Assembly: GCA_016191015.1 (NCBI GenBank)
Contig: JACPPM010000204.1
Span: 1-41,411 of the forward strand
DNA length: 41,411 nt
Direction of reading: 5' to 3'
Source: Acidobacteriota bacterium
Lineage (GTDB): Bacteria > Acidobacteriota > CAIWXX01
The notes under the pieces were generated by a model. That model was not told where the DNA came from and made no database searches. It was given only the letters and a program-made list of their open reading frames with translations. The number at the start of each line of letters is the position of its first letter. Position 1 is the first letter of the stretch. Made by a program: the position numbers and the translations under genes. Shown here piece after piece: positions 22,164 to 37,485 of the stretch.

Positions 22164-25100
22164 TCAGGTCAGGGGAACCAGCGATATGACCGGCACGAGT
22201 CGCTCGATCATCGATGCCCCGCCGTGGGTATAGGACCTTCCGTCGCGGGCGATCCTGAAGCCATGATCGGCGAACAGCGTGATCGGCGCGGATGGGTCGA
22301 GGCTGCGCGTGAGCGACCTGCATGCGATGCGCAGCTCAGCCGCCGCGACCCGACGCAAATCTTCGAAGCGCAAGAACCGCTCGTGCAGCAGCCGGTCCAC
22401 GACGTCGATCTTGGTGAGTGGATGATTGTGCCCTGCGCCGACCAGGTCGCGGAAGAAGGCTGCGGTCGTGGTCTCGGTCGAGACGATGGCCGTCGATTCA
22501 GCCTCGACTCGCCAGGACGGCAGAAGCGCCGGCAACTCGGCATGCAGTGCCGAAAGAAGCGGCAATCCGAGGCAGTCCAGAATGAGCCACTGCGTCTGCT
22601 GTCGATCGTTGAGGAGAGCGGGGAGCGAATCCGGTGCCTCGGCCAGGACGCTGTTGGCGAGATTATCGAGACAGTCCAGCCAACGGGGCTCGGCGATTCG
22701 CATCATGCGGTGGTGCTGTCCGTAGAGCGTCTCGGCGAGGGTGGCGAGCTCGGCGGCGGTGCCGGGACGGGTCGGAGACGCCACTTCGATGGCAGCCTGC
22801 ACAAGACCAGGGACGCGGCGGCCTGCCGGCAGGCCGAGGGTGCCGTCGATGAGCCACTGCACTATGCTTTCCTCGGCGGCTTCGCCCAGGGCCAGCGATT
22901 CGAGACGCTCGAGCGTCTCCGCGCTGACCCACTCGGGACGTATGGATTTCCGGAGCTCTCCTATCTCCAGCGCATTCAAACCACCGGGAAGCGGCACACC
23001 GTGGCGCAATGACTGCTCGACGCACCAGAGCACGATGCCGCTGTCGCGCTCGCGCGGCTGCACGCGGAGCCTCGAAGGTTCATACCTCGCCAGCAACCGG
23101 TCGATCTCGGCGACCAGATCCTGCCTGCTCCAACTGCGCCCGCGCAGCTCCTCGAAGAGGGTGTCGATGTCGATCTGAGCAGTGAGCTGCAATCCCGACA
23201 TGTGCTGATCGAAAAGCGCCAGGTTCTCGATATCCGGGACGGCGGCGGATCCGTCGAGGTAGGCGAGCGTGCCGGTGGTCAGCTCGAACCCCTGCGCCTG
23301 CCATTCTCTCATGCGGCTCTTGATCGACTCATCCTGGAACAGCATCCGCAACGAGGTCTCGATCTTCTCTCGCCCCGTCTGCAGGCGCTGCAGTTCTTCC
23401 TCGAGCGGCGCAGATTCGCCGTCGAATCCGCAGGTGCAGACGGGCTGGAAGTCGAGGTTGACCAAACCATGGCAGACCATCCGCGCCGCGCGCTCGCGTC
23501 GGTCATTCCAATCCCGGAGCTCAGCCTCGAGTCCCGCATGTTTGCTGGCGGCGACGCGAGGTGGCGTCCAGCTCATGATTTCGCGCGGCCGGTCCCAGAA
23601 GGCGCCGTGCGCGGCGGTGTAATCGGCCTTGTACGCATCGTAGGCGCCCTTCGCATCGAGCAGCCATCGCTCGGCGGAATCGAGATCATCGATCAGCGGC
23701 GGCGAGCCGATCTGCCCGGCGCGTGCGACGCGCTCAGCGCGCTCGGTGCGTGCCCAGGCGGGGTGGGTGAAGAGGTGTTTGCAGCGCGTGAGCTCTGCGA
23801 GGAGGCGATCGATGCGATCGGGCAGTGGGCTCAACTCGGCGTGCAACGACAGGAAGCGTGCAGGCGAACCGATCTCGTAGAGAAAATGCTCAAACCCCTG
23901 CAGCTCATGTTCCCCCTTCTCGATCGCAGCCAGCTGCGCGAGCATCTTGTGGAGCTTCCCCGAGAGCTCCTCGCTGACACCATACTGCTGTAGCTTGAGC
24001 AGCGCGGACTGGAATCGGACCGACTGGGCGCGCGCGACTTCCCGGAGCTGCTGCACGGCGAACCTTTGCGCCGCCACGGTCCACTGCTTCGGAACGCGAA
24101 CGCCCAGTGCGTCGCATAGGTGTTGGAGGTCCCGGAGCTGATCGGCGGTCAGAGCCCGCCCGGGCACGATCTTCCCGTACTGGATCGGCGTCGGGAGCGT
24201 TTCGAATAGCTCCCGGTACGATTTCTTCTCCTTCACGATATCCAGCTCTCCGTAGAGGAGGAGGAAGATGAGCAGCAGGTGGATCTGATCGGGAACCAGT
24301 CCGTAGACGGGACTGGCCAGGTGGGTGTAGACCACGGCCGGAGCCGGATGATGCTCGACCAGCGGCATCAGAAGACTGACGAGCTCGTTGCGATCGAGCC
24401 GTGCGGGCAGGGAGTAGTCCTGCCCCTTGCGCTGGAGCAGTCCCATGGGTACCAGGTACGCCTCGCGGATCAATTTCACGTATTCGTCGGCATCGGGCAC
24501 GCCGATATCGTGCTCGGCGGCGAAGCGCATGAAGCGACGGTAGGCCTCCTTGGGCAGCGGCCCATGGCTCGGGGCGAACCGCTCGAACGAGGGATATGTC
24601 CGCCGCAGGATCCACTGCGCGTGGTGCTCGAGCCACAGTTGTAGGGAACTGGAGGTGTCGATCCGCAGCGGGCTCTCCGCCTTGCCGGTCGGCGCTGTGA
24701 TCGTGGCTTCCAGATAGGCGCTCCGGACCTGAGCGCGAAACAGCGCGACCCTTTCCGCGATCCGCCGGTCCAGGCGTTGGAGCAGATCCGGATTCATCGG
24801 GCGTTCGCGGAGGCGCAGCAGAGCGGCGAGCTCGAGCGTCTCCTCGCCCAACGTGAGCCGTGCCGGCTGGAGCATGTAGACACCCGGCGCCGGTTCGCTC
24901 TCTCCCCATGGCAACCGGATGCAGAGCGCACAATCTTCCTTCGGCGGCGGAACACCGTCGCCCAGATAGACCCAGTACGTGCGTTCATGAAAATGCCAGC
25001 GCAGGGAGCGCATCTGCCACTCGTTCCGTGGCAGTTGGAAGGGATTGAAGACGTCAGCCGCGGTGGTTGGAGCGAGCAGTTCGAAGACGGCATCGCCCCT

Positions 25101-26444
25101 GCCCTGGAGCTCGGCCAGCTCCCGCGCGAGCATCTTCTCCAACGCTCCGCCACCATCGCCTTCGAGGTGCAGGGAGTAGCGTCCGTTTTTTTCCTGCACG
25201 AAGTCGGATTCCGCGTGCATGTTTTTCATCGTCCGGTCAATTATCCGAATGTTTTTTGCCGGATCGACCCTTGCGGTAGTGAAAAGAAGCCAGTGCGCCG
25301 CCTCGGTCGGCGACACCCCCTTGCGTACCGGCGAGAGGTAGGTCACGATCAACAGCTTCAGGACACGCCAGGCAAGCTCACGCGCCGGCTCCGTTTCGAA
25401 CATCGCATCCATGTTCTTGCGGTAATGCGGCAGGACGCGTTGCGCAAGCGGTAGGAACTCGGGCTGGATCTCGAACAGATCCATGAAGTGGTCGACGATC
25501 CGGTCGGGGCTCAGGAACGAGCCCCACGGGCCGTCGAGAAAGGGCTGGATCCCTCGAGTCGCTTGCCCCGCCAATTGCGTCGTGATGAAATCGACCACCC
25601 CGCGCGCCTGCGAGAAGCGGTCGCGCACCTCTTCGAGCAGATCCAGAGTAACCGGGTGAACCGGATAGATCGAAGCCATTGCCGGAAGGTCGAGATTGCT
25701 GTCGGGGTATGCCTTCTTCAACCGGCTGCACAATTGCTCCACGGCCTCGGCGTATCCCGGCTGCTTGATCAGAATGGCCTTCGAGACCAGGTCGCGCACG
25801 TGTGCCGGCGAGAGCAGGAACCGCAGCGGGTACCGATCCTTGATCTTGCGGTACAACGCGTGCTCCAGATCTCCGGCATGCTCAATCTGCTCCTGCATCG
25901 CTGCAATCACCCAGAACCGGTGCCCCTGGGCCCATTCACCTATGTACTGCAGAAACCGAACGTCTTCGTTGAAAAGCTGTGGCGTTGGTTTCGAGCGAAG
26001 GAATTCGGAAACCTCATCAAGAAGGAGAATCACGCGCGGACCGGAAGTCAGCGCCGACCAGGAGAGACGCCGATCTTCCTGCCCCGGCCTCAGACCCAGG
26101 GCGCCGCAGACGATGTCCTCGAGCCTGGCATCGGCCGCGTAGTTCAGCAGGGAGACCGCGACGACCTTCAAGGATCCGTCACCGATCAGCCCGACGCGCG
26201 CCTGTTTGGCAACGTAGGCGAGGAAGTGCGACTTGCCGGCACCATAGCTCCCGATCAGGAAGATCCCGCAGCCGGAGGGTTTTGCTATGGCGGCGCGCAG
26301 GGAGCTGAGATACTTATCTACGTCAGTAGTGATGCAGTAGCTCTCAGTGATCCACTCGGATTCACCACCGTCCAGATGGTCCAGGCGCACAACTGTCGGA
26401 TGCGCTCTCACATCGACGAGGTCGCGGATTCGTCTGGGCTCCAT
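22164..26444 (-). CDS. DUF6079/PglY-type ATPase fused to a C-terminal PglZ-like domain
   Basis: 1426 residues from the ATG at 26444 (AGAGGA about 8 bases before; the longer frame to 26501 has no such site). N-terminus RIRDLVDVRAHPTVVRLDHL, Walker A GSYGAGKSH (65-73) and Walker B RVILLLDEVSEFL (about 137-149) resemble the large DUF6079 ATPases that include PglY of type 2 BREX and are related in role to BrxC. A long helical middle follows, with a CTCGFDGE motif before a coiled coil (PLEEELQRLQTGREKIETSL). The last ~150 residues look like the PglZ/alkaline-phosphatase fold: LILDCLGLPLL (first metal Asp, about 1290), VSTETTTAAFF (Ser/Thr nucleophile candidates 1322-1327), FADHGF (1393-1395) and THGGASMIERLVP (His 1407). 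No BREX methyltransferase, BrxL or PglW is present. Phage defence is an inference from family membership. Confidence 0.8.
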   Translation of the reverse strand: MEPRRIRDLVDVRAHPTVVRLDHLDGGESEWITESYCITTDVDKYLSSLRAAIAKPSGCGIFLIGSYGAGKSHFLAYVAKQARVGLIGDGSLKVVAVSLLNYAADARLEDIVCGALGLRPGQEDRRLSWSALTSGPRVILLLDEVSEFLRSKPTPQLFNEDVRFLQYIGEWAQGHRFWVIAAMQEQIEHAGDLEHALYRKIKDRYPLRFLLSPAHVRDLVSKAILIKQPGYAEAVEQLCSRLKKAYPDSNLDLPAMASIYPVHPVTLDLLEEVRDRFSQARGVVDFITTQLAGQATRGIQPFLDGPWGSFLSPDRIVDHFMDLFEIQPEFLPLAQRVLPHYRKNMDAMFETEPARELAWRVLKLLIVTYLSPVRKGVSPTEAAHWLLFTTARVDPAKNIRIIDRTMKNMHAESDFVQEKNGRYSLHLEGDGGGALEKMLARELAELQGRGDAVFELLAPTTAADVFNPFQLPRNEWQMRSLRWHFHERTYWVYLGDGVPPPKEDCALCIRLPWGESEPAPGVYMLQPARLTLGEETLELAALLRLRERPMNPDLLQRLDRRIAERVALFRAQVRSAYLEATITAPTGKAESPLRIDTSSSLQLWLEHHAQWILRRTYPSFERFAPSHGPLPKEAYRRFMRFAAEHDIGVPDADEYVKLIREAYLVPMGLLQRKGQDYSLPARLDRNELVSLLMPLVEHHPAPAVVYTHLASPVYGLVPDQIHLLLIFLLLYGELDIVKEKKSYRELFETLPTPIQYGKIVPGRALTADQLRDLQHLCDALGVRVPKQWTVAAQRFAVQQLREVARAQSVRFQSALLKLQQYGVSEELSGKLHKMLAQLAAIEKGEHELQGFEHFLYEIGSPARFLSLHAELSPLPDRIDRLLAELTRCKHLFTHPAWARTERAERVARAGQIGSPPLIDDLDSAERWLLDAKGAYDAYKADYTAAHGAFWDRPREIMSWTPPRVAASKHAGLEAELRDWNDRRERAARMVCHGLVNLDFQPVCTCGFDGESAPLEEELQRLQTGREKIETSLRMLFQDESIKSRMREWQAQGFELTTGTLAYLDGSAAVPDIENLALFDQHMSGLQLTAQIDIDTLFEELRGRSWSRQDLVAEIDRLLARYEPSRLRVQPRERDSGIVLWCVEQSLRHGVPLPGGLNALEIGELRKSIRPEWVSAETLERLESLALGEAAEESIVQWLIDGTLGLPAGRRVPGLVQAAIEVASPTRPGTAAELATLAETLYGQHHRMMRIAEPRWLDCLDNLANSVLAEAPDSLPALLNDRQQTQWLILDCLGLPLLSALHAELPALLPSWRVEAESTAIVSTETTTAAFFRDLVGAGHNHPLTKIDVVDRLLHERFLRFEDLRRVAAAELRIACRSLTRSLDPSAPITLFADHGFRIARDGRSYTHGGASMIERLVPVISLVPLT

Positions 26445-26571
26445 CTGTGTATCCTCTGCCGGACTGGCGGCGCGGTTTCTGTCTCGAGACCGCGTCAGCA
26501 CTTGCGAGTCGTTATTCTCTCCCAGAAGAGCGGGAAAGTCGATCGAGCGAGGCTGCCTGCCAGGCCCATGC

Positions 26572-26577
26572 TAGAAT
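26572..26577 (+). promoter_or_regulatory. weak -10 candidate for the TPR gene
   Basis: TAGAAT, five of six matches to the -10 consensus, lies 25 bases before the ATG at 26602. No good -35 is present at 16-18 bases. The 157-base divergent spacer (26445-26601) must hold promoters for both this gene and the ATPase-PglZ gene; no convincing site was found for the latter. Confidence 0.2.
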
Positions 26578-26601
26578 GGCGCGGGCGCAAGAGGAGCTGG
26601 G

Positions 26602-27570
26602 ATGGTCGAAGAGCTGAAGAGGGTATTGCGGCGGAACCTGGAGCAGGCCTTGCGGGTGTCGGACCTCGGCCAGGCCGATATCCTCCTGGAGCGGCTCAAG
26701 GCCGAGGATCCGCTGTCGGTCGAGACCCGGGGCCTGGAGCTCGATTTCCTGATTCATGCGCGTCGATTCGATGAGGCGCAATCGCTCTCGTCTCAGCTCC
26801 TGGAGCTATTCCCCGCTTCCCCCCGCATTCAGTATTTCGCGGGTCTGCTGGCCTGCCGGACGAAGAGGTACGCAGAGGGTGAGGTCCACCTGCGTGAGAG
26901 CGAGAGACTCCACGCCCATTGGCGGACACGTCTCTGGCTTGGCAAAGCTCTCACTCAGTTGGGCCGCTTCGACGAGGCCGAAGCCATTCTGTTGGGGCTC
27001 CTGCCACAGCATCCCAACTGCCGTACAGATCTCGCGTGGTTGTACGAAAGGAAGCAGGAAGGCAGCCGGGCGATGAAACTGCTGCAGGAGCATCTTCTGG
27101 CGAATCCGGACGACTCGTTCGCACAGTCGCAGCTTCGCCGACTGGAGGCGCGAGCTGTTTCGCCGGAGGAGCTCCGCGACGAGGTCGACACTCTGGCGGA
27201 GCTCGGCGAAGAAGTCGACCCTGACGTTCTCCCGGAATACATCGAAGTCCTCCTGCGCAGCGGTGACGCAGCCAGAGCCAGGAGTGTCGTCGGAGAGAGA
27301 CTACCCGCCCTCGGTCCGAAACACAGGACCCGTGTCGGCTGGGCGTGCTACAAGCTGCAGGCGTATGACATGGCGTTCGAGCTGTTTTGCGCGAGCTTCG
27401 CTGAGAACCGCGCGGACTTCAAGTTTCTTGCGGCGCTGGAATGTGCCGCGGATCGGTGCGGTCGAACGGGGGAGCTGCTGCGCCTCTACGCATCGCACGC
27501 CGTTAGCGAGAAACGTCTCTACGGCAGGATGAAGACGCTCAGCGCGAGATTGCAGGCTCGCCGCCAGTAG
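26602..27570 (+). CDS. cytoplasmic TPR-repeat protein
   Basis: 322 residues with no signal peptide or membrane helix. Helical TPR-type repeats run through the whole chain (for example RRFDEAQSLSSQLLELFPAS, then RRYAEGEVHL-like and LGRFDEAEAILLGLLPQHPN), with a less regular second half. Good ribosome-binding site GAGGAG 6 bases before the ATG at 26602. Transcribed divergently from the ATPase-PglZ gene across 157 bases, so they may share regulation, and the protein could be an adaptor for it; this is only positional inference. Function is otherwise unknown. Confidence 0.75.
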   Translation: MVEELKRVLRRNLEQALRVSDLGQADILLERLKAEDPLSVETRGLELDFLIHARRFDEAQSLSSQLLELFPASPRIQYFAGLLACRTKRYAEGEVHLRESERLHAHWRTRLWLGKALTQLGRFDEAEAILLGLLPQHPNCRTDLAWLYERKQEGSRAMKLLQEHLLANPDDSFAQSQLRRLEARAVSPEELRDEVDTLAELGEEVDPDVLPEYIEVLLRSGDAARARSVVGERLPALGPKHRTRVGWACYKLQAYDMAFELFCASFAENRADFKFLAALECAADRCGRTGELLRLYASHAVSEKRLYGRMKTLSARLQARRQ

Positions 27571-32869: not shown

Positions 32870-34024
32870 TCAAGGCGGCGGCAAGGCTTCTCGCAGGATG
32901 CGCTCTGTGATCGCAAGGGCCTGGGGGCATCCGGGATCAAGAAGAGCAAGATTAATGTTTGGATCACGGTATCCGGGCCGCAATGAGCGCGCCTGCTCGA
33001 ACGCTTGGCGCGCTGCCTCCAGCCGTCCACAGTGAGCCAACGCGACGCCGAAGTTATTCCAGAGCTCCGCGGCCACACCGTGCATTCTGCAACCCTGCTC
33101 CAGGACCGAGAGTGCGTCCGCCGTTCTCCCCCGCATCAGGTCCCATGTCCCGAGAAGGAAGAACCGTGAAGTCCCTGCGGGATCCAGCCGTTCGAGCTCA
33201 GTGAGGGCGCCAAGAAAAAGAGTTTCGCTCCTCACCTTGAATGCGTGATTGGCCATGGCGAGCGCGCGCGACGCGGCGGAATCCGGGTACAGTCTCTCGA
33301 ATGCGGCACGGACGCAGTCGATCGGCCAGCGCTCCAGGATCATGCGCTCCGCTGTGAGATGTGCCGCCAGATCGCTGCTTGTATTCTCGTCATGACGACG
33401 AACATGAGCCTCCACACTCGCGAGGTAGCTCCAGCTTCCGTGATGGGCGATCCGCAACCAGAGGTCGTAGTCCTCGGCGTGCGCTAACCCGGAATCGAAT
33501 CCATTCAACTTCATCAGCAGGTCACGTCGCGCGAGCACAGTGGGAGTCGCGATTTGGTTGCGAACGAGGAGACCGCCCATTGCCCGGGCTCCTTCGAAGC
33601 CGTTCCATGTCCAGTCTGACACGCCGAGGGGGATGCCGGCCGCGTCGACCCATCTCGCCGTGCCGGCCACCGCGCCGGCCCCGCTCCGTTCCAACTCCGC
33701 GATGCATCGTGCCAGATGACCCGGAGTATGGAGATCGTCGGCATCGAGGAAGGCGACGAACGGTGCCCGTGTCGCCCAAATCCCCTGGTTGCGCGCCACT
33801 GAGGGACCCGCTTGGCGACCAGTCGAGAGGTATTTGATCGGGAATCCCCCCGGCCGCGTGCGCCCCAGAGGCGGGCCGTCTTCGATGAGGAGGATTTCCA
33901 TCCGCATCGAGTAATCCAGTGAGGCGAGAGCCGCATCCAGAAACGGCGCCTCCCCAATCACCGGTACGACAACGGCGACGTCAGGGAGAGTCTGCCCCTC
34001 AGGTTCTGAAGAAAAAGTTACCAT
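32870..34024 (-). CDS. family-2 glycosyltransferase with a C-terminal TPR tail
   Basis: 384 residues. GT-A fold N-terminus: VAVVVPVIGEAPFLDAALAS, IEDGPPL, QAGPSVARNQGIWATRAP and the DADD motif FLDADDLHTPG; the later AEDYDLWLRIA is the usual family-2 acceptor-side motif. From about 265 onward it becomes TPR-like (FFLLGTWDLMRGRTADALSV, ELWNNFGVALAHCGRLEAAR, QAFEQARSLRPG), perhaps a protein-interaction tail. Its first 26 bases overlap the end of the preceding GT2 gene. Soluble, probably acting at the membrane face on a glycan or a glycosylated protein; the sugar is unknown. Confidence 0.88.
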   Translation of the reverse strand: MVTFSSEPEGQTLPDVAVVVPVIGEAPFLDAALASLDYSMRMEILLIEDGPPLGRTRPGGFPIKYLSTGRQAGPSVARNQGIWATRAPFVAFLDADDLHTPGHLARCIAELERSGAGAVAGTARWVDAAGIPLGVSDWTWNGFEGARAMGGLLVRNQIATPTVLARRDLLMKLNGFDSGLAHAEDYDLWLRIAHHGSWSYLASVEAHVRRHDENTSSDLAAHLTAERMILERWPIDCVRAAFERLYPDSAASRALAMANHAFKVRSETLFLGALTELERLDPAGTSRFFLLGTWDLMRGRTADALSVLEQGCRMHGVAAELWNNFGVALAHCGRLEAARQAFEQARSLRPGYRDPNINLALLDPGCPQALAITERILREALPPP

Positions 34025-35027
34025 CTGAGCTCCATCCCGTCATGCCCATGCGATGCAGGAATTCCCGGACGCATGGCATCAAAGAGAAATCGGTTACGAT
34101 GAGGATGTCCCACTCCCCGACGTCCGTCCCTGGAAAGGCTTGGGTATCTCGCAGACGAATCTCCGATTCAAGTCCCTGAGGAGTCTGCGCGAGGACCAGG
34201 CCGAAGTCCGTGGCGGCTTCTTGATAGAGCTCAGCGCCGAGCCCTTCACCGAGGATAACGGCTCGCGCCGCCCCGGGCAGATCCGGCTTCGTCCGTCGCA
34301 CATAGTCCAGCTTGGAGCGGATGGCGCGGCGGATTTGCTCGACCCGTCGTCCCTCGCTCACCCGAGTCTCATGAATGCGGTAGATGTAGAGTCGCTCCGC
34401 CAATCGCGCGAACCGGTGGGCCGGAAGCAGGCGCAGCCACAGATCGTAGTCCTCTGCCCACTGATACTCCGGGCGGTATCCGTGTGCTTCTGTCATAACC
34501 CGTGTTCTGGCCAGAATGCTGCCGTGGACGAAGCAGCAGGTCAGGGCGAGGAGATCGCGGATCTGGGCGGGCGTCCGCGCGACATCGTGCTGGTCGCGAA
34601 CGGCACGGGTCCAGGGCGTCTCGACCGATGAGCCCGTCGCATCGATGAACTCGACGCAAGTGGCCACGATATCGACATCCGGATTCGATCGAAGGTGCCC
34701 AACCTGCTGCGCCAACCGATCCACATGGGAAAGATCGTCCGCGTCCTGACGAGCGAGGAGCTCGCCGCGGGCTTCGAGGAGCCCGCGATTGAGAGCACTG
34801 ACGATCCCCTGCCGGCTGGTCTCGATGTGGCGGATCCTGGAGTCGCCGAGCGACCGCACGTACTTGGCCGATCCGTCGTCACTTCCGTCGTCAATGACGA
34901 CGACCTCGAGGTCCGCGTATGTCTGCCGGAGGATGCTCTCGAGCGCCAGAGGCAGATAGGGCATCCCGTTGCGCACCGGCAAGACGACACTGACGAGCCC
35001 CTCGGTCAGATCAGAAGTAGCGCACAT
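33999..35027 (-). CDS. family-2 glycosyltransferase
   Basis: 342 residues from the ATG at 35027, chosen because it lies just before the first GT-A strand; the frame stays open upstream only inside the radical SAM gene. Motifs: VSVVLPVRNGMPYLPLALES, VVIDDGSDDGSAKYV, GIVSALNRGLLEARGELLAR, QDADDLS and WAEDYDLWLRLL. After about residue 250 the C-terminal part is not recognised. It overlaps the radical SAM gene by 17 bases upstream and the GT2-TPR gene by 26 downstream, so translation is coupled. It transfers a sugar from a nucleotide sugar within the glycan pathway; specificity is unknown. Confidence 0.9.
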   Translation of the reverse strand: MCATSDLTEGLVSVVLPVRNGMPYLPLALESILRQTYADLEVVVIDDGSDDGSAKYVRSLGDSRIRHIETSRQGIVSALNRGLLEARGELLARQDADDLSHVDRLAQQVGHLRSNPDVDIVATCVEFIDATGSSVETPWTRAVRDQHDVARTPAQIRDLLALTCCFVHGSILARTRVMTEAHGYRPEYQWAEDYDLWLRLLPAHRFARLAERLYIYRIHETRVSEGRRVEQIRRAIRSKLDYVRRTKPDLPGAARAVILGEGLGAELYQEAATDFGLVLAQTPQGLESEIRLRDTQAFPGTDVGEWDILIVTDFSLMPCVREFLHRMGMTGWSSDGNFFFRT

Positions 35028-37485
35028 AGTCGCCGTTTTCGCGCAAACCGATCCGCTCCAACTGCCGGCTGATCTCCGTCGCTCCACTGCGAGACGCGAC
35101 CACGACGAACTTATCCCGGCAGTGCCGGCCATCGTCCCAGGGCAGGACTGGAATCCCGGATAGGGAGGCAGCCTGTCTTGACGCATAGTTGTCGACGAAG
35201 GCGGTGACAGCAACGCCTGAATTCAGAAGCTTTCGAAGGACTTTGCGACCACCGCTCCCGGCTCCGAAGATCACAACAGGCTTGCCGGTGTCCCCGATCT
35301 TCCGGACGATGTCTCCACAATCCCTCTCGGTCTCCATGCAATTCGAAAGACAACTCAGGCAGTGCGACTGCCGCAGCTTGCGGAGTGCGGCCAAGTGAGA
35401 TTCGGATCCCCAGAGTTGTCGGATAGCGTCGGGCCGATCACCCTGACCGACGCGCCCGGCGGAGGTGACCGGGCAGACGTGGAAGGCACCGTCCGCGTCC
35501 AGGAAGAAGCCGCGGTCCCAGAAAACGCAGGCCGACTGTCTTTCCGCACCTCGCAGAATCCGACTCGCATCGGCAAGAGTTGTGAGCCCCCGGAGCTTGC
35601 CGTATGCCTCGATCGCATCGGCGACTCCGGACCATTGCGATGGAGAGGCCTGCCACTGGTCGCGGACGTCCGCGCTCCCGATGTAGATGTCAGACTCAGT
35701 CGCCGGTGTCAGTGTCAGCCCGACGCCTGCATCTCGGGCCAGGTCGTCGACAACATGGATGTCATCCACATTCATCGGCATGACCGTCATGTTGATTCCG
35801 ACACTCAGGTTGCGCCTCTCGGAGGCGAGCTTGACGAGGGCGCGGAGGGTCTTGAGCGATTTCGCGAAGAGTCCCTGCACACCTCTGACGTGGTCGTGGA
35901 CCTCGGCCCCTCCGTCCAAGGACACGGTCATCGCGAGTGTCACCGGAGGTGGGAGAAGGGCGAGGATTTGGCCGACTTGCCCCAGGATTCGCTCAGGCAT
36001 CGAACCGTTCGTGGGGATCCCGATCTCCTGGAGTAACGGGCAGAGATCGATCAAGTCACTGACCACCTCAGGCAAGTCCGCCCTGAGGAAGGGCTCGCCG
36101 CCCGTCAGGTTCACGACCTCGAGGTGTGCCTTGATGAGCGGATCGTCGAGCCTGCGTCGCAACGTCTCGCGGGCCACCACCTGCGGGTCATCCCGCTGCC
36201 AGATCGTGCACATCGCGCACTGGACGTTGCACGCATACGTCAGAGGCATCACCAGCACCGTGGGGCCGCCCAGAACCCTCGATAAGGGCGCATCTGCTTC
36301 GTCGCCTTCGTCGCTGCGGCCCTTTGGGCGGGCACTTTCGACGTACGAGAGCTTCGCCTCGAGTGCATTCGCCTGGCTCACCATCTCCTCCAGCGCCAGA
36401 ATGGTGGGACGCCAAAGATGGGCGGGGTGTTGCCGGTAGTCGATTCCGGTGCGCCAGAAACGAGGTAGAAAGGAAAGTCCAAGAGTCTCCTGGAGAGTGT
36501 GACGCACTGCAGAATCGTCGCCCCACCGCAGGACCTCATCGAGCAGGGGGCGAAGTGTCGAAGATGCCACCGAGGCGCCGCCCTGCGCTTGCAGGAGTCC
36601 TTGCCGGGCGTTAGCGACCCTCGGACGCAGGGCTTCCAAAGAGTCCCGCTCCCGCACCAGCCTGTCATCGGCCGTGGGCCCGTCCGTGAGATCTACCGTG
36701 GCTTCCGATGTCACCCTCTTCGTGACGCATTCACTGAGCGGTCGGCGTGACCAGCCGGGTTTAGGAGCGGCGCTTTCGCCGCAGTCAACGAAAGTGATTC
36801 CCGGGATGTGACTCAGGACGGAGAGCAAGGCAGCGAGCGGGCGGAACGCCGGAGTCACACCACCGGCGTCCCCGAGGTCGATCCCGAGAAGACCGATGCA
36901 GGTCGCTCCAGCGCCCAGAGCAGTCGCAACGGCCGTCGCGGGCCACAGCCCCCAGCCGAGCCAGATCTCGGGAATGAATACGCGGCCCGCTCGCGCGTGG
37001 GCGAACAATGACGGTGGTGTTTTTGGCTCAATCGCCATCCACCCAGATCCCACGCAGAGGCGTCCGGCCCGTTCCCTCGCAGAAAGCTCGGCTTCCAGAC
37101 ATGATTGATGTTCGATGAGGACCAGATCCGGTTCAATGCCGTATCCTGCTAGCGCATCAGCACCCCGCAGGGAGGTCACAAGATGGAAGAACCCACGCCG
37201 ATTCTTGAGCTCGCCGATTGCAGCATGCAGAGACGGTCCGGTGCCTACTACCAGGATCAGATCGCCGGCGGGAATGCGCAAGCGCCCCAAGGGGACGACA
37301 GCGTTGTCCAGACGATTGTGAAGCGGATCGAGCCGGGCTCCGGTGAACCTCCCGAAATGTGCGGCGTATGCGGACCACGCATGACTGAGGACGGGCTCGC
37401 GGCCTTCAGAAGGAATCTCATCAATCGCGAGGTAGTGATCGGCGCCGATCTCTCCGAGGAGAAGCAGCGTTCCATCGTTGGTCAC
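35011..37485 (-). CDS. DUF115 (Maf-like) - radical SAM/SPASM - Rossmann three-part fusion
   Basis: 824 residues, starting with GTG whose GTGA overlaps the GT4 stop. Part 1 (about 1-300) resembles DUF115/motility-accessory-factor proteins (LILVVGTGPSLHAAIGELK, SLRGADALAGYGIEPDLVLI). Part 2 (about 410-715) is a radical SAM enzyme with CNVQCAMC binding [4Fe-4S]-SAM, NLTGGEPFLRADLPE and SLDGG, plus SPASM-type Cys (CVFWDRG, HVCPVTSAG, CLSCLSNC). Part 3 (about 725-824) is a nucleotide-binding-like domain (PVVIFGAGSGGRKVLRKLL). The linker at about 389-402 (RSDEGDEADAPLS) is encoded by a dispersed repeat. Maf proteins glycosylate flagellin and some radical SAM enzymes modify peptides or sugars, so a role in glycan or protein modification is inferred. 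The exact reaction is unknown. Confidence 0.82.
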   Translation of the reverse strand: MTNDGTLLLLGEIGADHYLAIDEIPSEGREPVLSHAWSAYAAHFGRFTGARLDPLHNRLDNAVVPLGRLRIPAGDLILVVGTGPSLHAAIGELKNRRGFFHLVTSLRGADALAGYGIEPDLVLIEHQSCLEAELSARERAGRLCVGSGWMAIEPKTPPSLFAHARAGRVFIPEIWLGWGLWPATAVATALGAGATCIGLLGIDLGDAGGVTPAFRPLAALLSVLSHIPGITFVDCGESAAPKPGWSRRPLSECVTKRVTSEATVDLTDGPTADDRLVRERDSLEALRPRVANARQGLLQAQGGASVASSTLRPLLDEVLRWGDDSAVRHTLQETLGLSFLPRFWRTGIDYRQHPAHLWRPTILALEEMVSQANALEAKLSYVESARPKGRSDEGDEADAPLSRVLGGPTVLVMPLTYACNVQCAMCTIWQRDDPQVVARETLRRRLDDPLIKAHLEVVNLTGGEPFLRADLPEVVSDLIDLCPLLQEIGIPTNGSMPERILGQVGQILALLPPPVTLAMTVSLDGGAEVHDHVRGVQGLFAKSLKTLRALVKLASERRNLSVGINMTVMPMNVDDIHVVDDLARDAGVGLTLTPATESDIYIGSADVRDQWQASPSQWSGVADAIEAYGKLRGLTTLADASRILRGAERQSACVFWDRGFFLDADGAFHVCPVTSAGRVGQGDRPDAIRQLWGSESHLAALRKLRQSHCLSCLSNCMETERDCGDIVRKIGDTGKPVVIFGAGSGGRKVLRKLLNSGVAVTAFVDNYASRQAASLSGIPVLPWDDGRHCRDKFVVVASRSGATEISRQLERIGLRENGDYVRYF
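36281..36330 (+). repeat. CTTCGTCGCC-type repeat inside the radical SAM gene
   Basis: GATAAGGGCGCATCTGCTTC, then GTCGCCTTCGTCGCTGCGG, then CCCTTTGGGCG. Matches the intergenic repeat at 29195 at 36 of 39 positions in the same orientation. On the coding strand it is in frame and yields the acidic linker between the DUF115 and radical SAM parts. Confidence 0.75.

What the first reader, a model, noticed from the sequence alone, without database searches (positions are those of the whole stretch)
22164..26444. The two core BREX components, a PglY/BrxC-type ATPase and a PglZ-type domain, appear fused in one 1426-residue protein
Seen: Walker A and B in a DUF6079-like N-terminus, and at the C-terminus LILDCLGLPLL, a Ser/Thr-rich turn, FADHGF and THGGASMIERLVP, the order expected of a PglZ/alkaline-phosphatase-fold metal site. 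Known: PglZ and a large BrxC/PglY ATPase are the constant partners in BREX phage-defence systems and are normally separate genes with a methyltransferase. Here no PglX, BrxL, BrxA/B or PglW is present and the neighbours are hypF and a TPR gene. Inference: a minimal or divergent BREX-like system, or a non-defence ancestor of it.
Basis: partly seen in the sequence, partly recalled or inferred. Interest (0 to 1): 0.8.

Follow-up and report, generated by a model that had tools for sequence, protein, structure and literature searches.

The report
Two-gene BrxC–PglZ fusion module
One bacterial protein naturally joins the two core parts of the BREX phage-defence machine, a DNA-binding ATPase and a metal-dependent nuclease-type domain, and in distantly related bacteria it is inherited together with a repeat (TPR) protein, so it looks like an undescribed two-gene offshoot of BREX that has no DNA-methylating enzyme.

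Summary
The fusion is real. It lies on the minus strand (22164-26444, 1426 aa). Residues 1-1076 are a full-length BrxC-type ATPase. The C-terminus is a minimal PglZ domain that Pfam misses, but its AlphaFold model (pLDDT 90) matches PorX and BREX PglZ first in the PDB. All seven alkaline-phosphatase-superfamily ligand positions (D1290, T1327, D1350/H1354, D1393/H1394, H1407) are invariant in 15 homologues. Homologues of the same architecture occur in 14 further genomes, in Gammaproteobacteria and in the window's own phylum. Methyltransferase, BrxL and BrxB are not encoded beside it, and 14 of 15 fusion genomes have no separate PglZ detectable by Pfam; the window's genome has a canonical Type 1 BREX on another contig. 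Best reading: a compact, methylation-free, BREX-related ATPase-nuclease plus TPR module. Defence is plausible but unproven, because no defence island surrounds it. No description of it was found in the papers searched.

The parts
22164..26444 (-). BrxC-PglZ fusion gene, 1426 aa, ATG start, stop at 22164-22166
   Evidence: ORF and homologue alignment starting at the same Met
23217..26444 (-). BrxC/DUF6079-type ATPase region, residues 1-1076
   Evidence: Pfam DUF6079 1.1e-19; hhalign to standalone BrxC-like family E 7e-17 over 4-1076 and to canonical BrxC E 2e-9; Foldseek top hits BrxC 9zll/9zdx
26229..26252 (-). Walker A, residues 65-72 GSYGAGKS
   Evidence: invariant G65, G68, G70, K71, S72 in 10 sequences
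26001..26030 (-). Walker B, residues 139-148 around D143-E144
   Evidence: invariant D143, E144 in 10 sequences
23430..23474 (-). Conserved Cys motif C991...C1003-x-C1005 near the end of the BrxC-like coiled-coil region
   Evidence: nearly invariant in A4; a similar C..PxCxCGF motif in standalone BrxC-like family A7
22620..23216 (-). helical linker between ATPase region and PglZ domain, residues 1077-1275
   Evidence: mostly helices in both models
22167..22619 (-). minimal PglZ-type metal-dependent phosphodiesterase domain, residues 1276-1426; lacks the long insert between DHG and HGG of canonical PglZ
   Evidence: AF2 pLDDT 90; Foldseek PorX and BREX PglZ; seven invariant ligand positions in 15 sequences
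22575..22577 (-). D1290, first predicted metal ligand
   Evidence: invariant
22224..22226 (-). H1407, last predicted metal ligand (HGG), in the position of PorX H500 / E. fergusonii PglZ H741
   Evidence: invariant; equivalence inferred from PMC12205998 and profile alignment
26602..27570 (+). TPR partner gene, 322 aa, divergently transcribed
   Evidence: TPR Pfam hits; co-occurrence and co-evolution
26445..26601 (.). 157-bp divergent intergenic region shared by the two genes
   Evidence: no sigma-70 consensus found

Best explanation
This is a compact two-gene BREX-related module. The large protein is a BrxC-type ORC/Cdc6-clade AAA+ ATPase whose C-terminus carries, on the same chain, a minimal PglZ-type metal-dependent phosphodiesterase/nuclease. 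The divergently transcribed TPR protein is its co-inherited partner. Shown here: the domain composition, the complete predicted catalytic residue set, the conserved pairing with the TPR gene, and the patchy, partly horizontal distribution. Inferred: the ATP-bound ATPase oligomerises on DNA as BREX BrxC does; covalent fusion replaces BrxB as the tether to PglZ; the TPR protein acts as sensor or brake; and when triggered, the PglZ domain nicks or cuts nucleic acid of an invader, or degrades an oligonucleotide signal. Because no methyltransferase is encoded beside it, self/non-self discrimination would not rest on a methyl mark of its own.
For: ATPase. PglZ domain: (after the family itself, the next-ranked of 2100 ORFs are the PglZ proteins). 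Partner: TPR divergently adjacent in 13 of 14 loci with a readable flank (the exception, G274, has it 26 kb away on the same contig). It is present in 8 of 9 fusion-bearing and 0 of 20 fusion-less Gammaproteobacteria (Fisher p 2e-6), and the two trees agree, with pairwise identities correlating at r=0.96, Mantel p 1e-4. In same-family genome G001 the fusion is absent and the TPR gene is truncated with two stops. Independence from BREX: 14 of 15 fusion genomes have no PF08665 PglZ. [quoted passage not shown] Accessory-gene behaviour: 5 of 369 sampled genomes of L007's class, different genomic neighbours, second copies in G434 and G570.
Against: No activity or phage resistance was tested. The loci are not in recognisable defence islands; neighbours are hyp, pst/phoU, flagellar, TonB and other housekeeping genes. 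No copy was found on plasmids or in viral contigs. Standalone BrxC-like ATPases in apparently housekeeping settings exist in the window's phylum and align better with the fusion than the canonical BrxC pair did. The metal-site geometry could not be measured, because model coordinates are not released.
Confidence: 0.6

Rival explanations
1. A non-defence, chromosomal DNA- or nucleotide-signal-processing ATPase-phosphodiesterase, sharing ancestry with BREX but serving cell physiology (for example nucleotide-second-messenger breakdown, as PorX does, or chromosome upkeep).
For: Housekeeping neighbours; standalone BrxC-like ATPases with recurring non-defence neighbours; the nearest solved folds to the C-terminus are PorX, a signalling phosphodiesterase.
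Against: Very patchy distribution, absent even from the same-family genome with a decayed partner, neighbours not conserved between lineages, likely transfer between phyla (window groups with L006 rather than with its own phylum, moderate support).
Confidence: 0.33
2. A satellite of canonical BREX that needs PglX or other BREX proteins in trans.
For: The window's genome has a Type 1 BREX on another contig.
Against: 14 of 15 fusion-bearing genomes have no separate PF08665 PglZ; neither the fusion nor its partner is near BREX genes in any locus.
Confidence: 0.05
3. The C-terminal domain is a catalytically dead or unrelated remnant and the protein is a plain BrxC-like ATPase.
For: Pfam gives no PglZ hit; the insert between DHG and HGG is missing.
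Against: All seven predicted catalytic residues are invariant at 31-48% identity; a confident model retrieves PorX and PglZ.
Confidence: 0.04

Closest known systems
BREX core complex BrxC:BrxB:PglZ (Type 1; PMC13326643, PMC12205998)
   Same: BrxC-type AAA+ ATPase coupled physically to a PglZ-type metal-dependent nuclease domain
   Different: One polypeptide; no BrxB-binding N-terminal domain, no Ig-like C-terminal domain, no insert between DHG and HGG in PglZ; no PglX, BrxL, BrxA or BrxB beside it; a TPR partner instead
BREX-Related Capture and Type-3 BR systems (PMC12839542)
   Same: DUF6079 or DUF499 ATPase with PglZ outside canonical BREX
   Different: There PglZ and ATPase are separate genes, with a HerA/FtsK translocase, or with a methyltransferase and helicase; neither TPR nor this fusion is mentioned in the main text
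PorX (PglZ-domain response regulator of PorXY)
   Same: best fold match of the C-terminal domain; catalytic Thr and last His in the same order
   Different: PorX has a receiver domain, not an AAA+ ATPase
SspC of Ssp phosphorothioate systems
   Same: BrxC-related ATPase; PADLOC SspC models also hit
   Different: no SspB, SspD or SspE genes recognised beside it and no PglZ domain in SspC
Standalone BrxC-like family A7 (L076, L077, L079)
   Same: aligns over residues 4-1076, shares the CxCGF motif
   Different: no PglZ domain and no TPR partner seen; next to a PBP1-type gene (L076, L077) or a small exported protein (L076, L079)

Membership tests
BrxC / DUF6079 ATPase | Pfam DUF6079 above gathering score with intact Walker A and B | tested here: met
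   69.9 bits vs cut-off 23; K71, D143, E144 invariant
BrxC (NCBIfam BREX_BrxC hypothetical equivalog) | score above curated cut-off 400 | tested here: not met
   52 bits
PglZ (Pfam PF08665) | profile hit above cut-off | tested here: not met
   no hit in 11 members
PglZ domain, fold level | PorX/PglZ fold and full ligand set | tested here: met
PglZ domain, fold level | ligands cluster into a metal site | tested here: inconclusive
   coordinates not available; inferred from fold match and invariant residues
BREX system (Types 1-6) | separate brxC/pglY and pglZ genes | tested here: not met
   one ORF
BREX system (Types 1-6) | adjacent modification gene (pglX, or PAPS reductase in Type 4) and brxL/brxA/brxB/pglW | tested here: not met
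   none recognised among large ORFs of the window or 13 other loci by reading and selected profile scans
BREX system (Types 1-6) | phage exclusion | not testable with these tools
   no experiment
PglZ nuclease | Mn/Zn-dependent phosphodiesterase or nuclease activity | not testable with these tools
   no experiment

The most novel reading that the evidence does not exclude
A previously undescribed two-gene immune system: a self-contained BrxC-PglZ ATPase-nuclease with a TPR sensor that excludes invaders without any DNA-modification enzyme of its own, either a stripped-down descendant or a surviving simple relative of the ancestor of BREX.
Probability: 0.45. Interest if true: 0.85.

Novelty: new variant of a known kind. 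Interest (0 to 1): 0.68.

Why it matters
How BREX stops phage is still unresolved; its ATPase and nuclease meet through BrxB in a multi-protein complex of changing make-up. A natural single-chain version with one partner gives a much simpler object for structure and biochemistry. It suggests that ATPase-to-PglZ coupling, rather than methylation, may be the ancient core, and it widens what defence-gene finders should look for, because current Pfam and NCBIfam models miss the PglZ half.

Tried and rejected
Reading the gene on the + strand: rejected, because it has internal stops. Pfam and PADLOC alone for the C-terminus: uninformative. Solved-structure sequence search with the C-terminal profile: no useful hit. 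Mobile-element origin: no plasmid match, no viral-contig match, and only a 13%-coverage match in one phage record. RNA element at the locus: none by Rfam. hypF as functional partner: rejected, because it was not seen beside the other loci. The 1797- and 1803-aa frames in L034 and L035 were first taken as longer fusions; the extra N-terminus is the antisense shadow of the TPR gene.

Full report
Observation. The gene at 22164-26444 is on the minus strand and encodes 1426 aa from the ATG at 26444. The upstream GTG frame would add 19 aa, but the homologues start at the ATG. It occurs once in the 6.43-Mb genome.

N-terminal part. Pfam DUF6079 matches at 1.1e-19, PADLOC BrxC at 5e-15 and NCBIfam BREX_BrxC at 3.6e-14, the last far below its curated cut-off. 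The profile of ten homologues aligns with canonical BrxC (two sequences, one from the window's own genome) at E 2e-9, and over residues 4-1076 with a family of standalone BrxC-like proteins at E 7e-17. A model of residues 1-1140 is of moderate quality (pLDDT 73.6, pTM 0.35). Its best PDB matches are nevertheless Acinetobacter BrxC (9zll, 9zdx) and then ORC/Cdc6 ATPases, which is the clade assigned to BrxC in PMC12839542.

C-terminal part. Pfam sees nothing. With 11 homologues the last 296 residues give a confident model (pLDDT 90.2, pTM 0.87). Foldseek against the PDB returns PorX seventeen times, then the PglZ chain of the Acinetobacter BREX complex, then alkaline-phosphatase-superfamily enzymes. 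TM-scores are low (0.34-0.43 by query for PorX), so the match is to the fold and not a close superposition. Profile-profile comparison with nine PglZ proteins gives E 7.1e-5 and probability 63%, against 0.0046 (7.6%) and 0.66 (0.1%) for two control pairs. An HMM of the segment searched over 2100 ORFs ranks the PglZ proteins directly after the family itself, with weak E-values. D1290, T1327, D1350, H1354, D1393, H1394 and H1407 are invariant in 15 sequences. They follow the D / S-T / DxxxH / DH / H order of the alkaline phosphatase superfamily (own knowledge), and T1327 and H1407 correspond in order to PorX T272/H500 and E. fergusonii PglZ T538/H741 (PMC12205998). The long stretch between DHG and HGG in canonical PglZ is reduced to about a dozen residues here.

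Distribution. Same-architecture homologues were found in Gammaproteobacteria (L006, L007, L008, L009/L033, L010, L029, L019/L030, L031/L032, L034, L035 with second copy L028) and in the window's own phylum (L069 with second copy L072, L070, L071, L073). L008 and L073 are cut by contig ends before or inside the PglZ region, and three genomes carry the gene split over two contigs. The window's class is not that of the Gammaproteobacteria homologues and holds only two genomes here. The family is rare: 5 of 369 sampled genomes of L007's class and 6 of 396 of the window's phylum, the distant L074 included.

The partner. In 13 of the 14 loci whose 5' flank can be read, the same TPR family is encoded divergently beside the fusion. 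In 12 it is directly adjacent and in L031 one gene intervenes. In the fourteenth (G274) it lies 26 kb away on the same contig. Of nine fusion-bearing Gammaproteobacteria eight have the TPR gene; the ninth has the fusion broken at a contig end. None of 20 fusion-less ones has it. The two protein trees agree on their supported groups, and pairwise identities correlate at 0.96 (Mantel p 1e-4). The window's same-family relative G001 has no fusion and only a truncated TPR copy with two internal stops, with a transposase-like frame nearby. Together these show a co-inherited pair, although physical interaction is not shown. In both trees the window groups with L006 rather than with its own phylum (support 83/91 and 92/89), which suggests transfer between phyla.

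Relation to BREX. No BREX gene was recognised beside any of the loci. Large ORFs were read by eye and selected neighbours were scanned with PADLOC; the few hits were generic domains. Fourteen of fifteen fusion genomes have no PF08665 PglZ; other BREX proteins were not searched genome-wide. The exception is the window's own genome, whose contig C251 carries BrxC, PglX, PglZ and BrxL. PMC13326643 shows that BrxC, BrxB and PglZ form a core complex bridged by BrxB; here the two ends are one chain and the BrxB-binding N-terminal part of PglZ is absent. The fusion is therefore coherent with known BREX contacts.

Literature. The large BREX survey PMC12839542 describes BREX, BR and capture systems; neither this fusion nor a TPR partner appears in its main text. 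Further searches of the held library found none. Its supplementary tables, subscription papers and preprints could not be read, so the claim of novelty is limited to that.

Function. I judge an anti-invader role somewhat more likely than a housekeeping one because of the sparse, partly horizontal, easily lost distribution and the two BREX-type catalytic parts. The housekeeping neighbours, the absence from plasmid and virus collections, and the standalone BrxC-like relatives keep the rival alive. The steps from ATP-driven assembly to nuclease release, and the sensor role of the TPR protein, are inference.

A second, distant architecture. L074 (G554) encodes a BrxC-PglZ fusion of about 1770 aa, keeping six of the seven ligand residues in alignment, with a divergent calcineurin-like phosphoesterase gene instead of the TPR gene. 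This is a single case.

Noticed in passing
L041 576-17964 and L075 1746-5492 (window genome contig C251): Canonical Type 1 BREX (BrxC, PglX-like pieces, PglZ, BrxL) with further genes inside that hit PADLOC Ppl and pAgo models.
   Followed up: partly
L076 2258-6136, L077 1733-5686, L079 1473-5258: Standalone BrxC-like ATPases of 1262-1318 aa without BREX genes in view, next to a PBP1-type transglycosylase (L076, L077) or a small exported protein (L076, L079); possibly a housekeeping branch of the BrxC superfamily.
   Followed up: partly
L074 128-5437 and 5530-6348: Divergent fusion of about 1770 aa, BrxC plus PglZ-type C-terminus, with a divergent calcineurin-like phosphoesterase gene in place of the TPR gene.
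   Followed up: partly
L058 1821-2633: Decayed TPR copy (two stops, N-terminus missing) in the window's same-family genome, with a transposase-like frame nearby and no fusion gene.
   Followed up: yes
window 23430-23474: Conserved C...CxC motif after the coiled-coil region, shared with the standalone BrxC-like family; a possible metal-binding hinge.
   Followed up: no
window 32873-37485: Glycosyltransferase with MftF similarity and a large radical-SAM protein with mycofactocin-maturase-like similarity close together; possible peptide-derived cofactor cluster.
   Followed up: no
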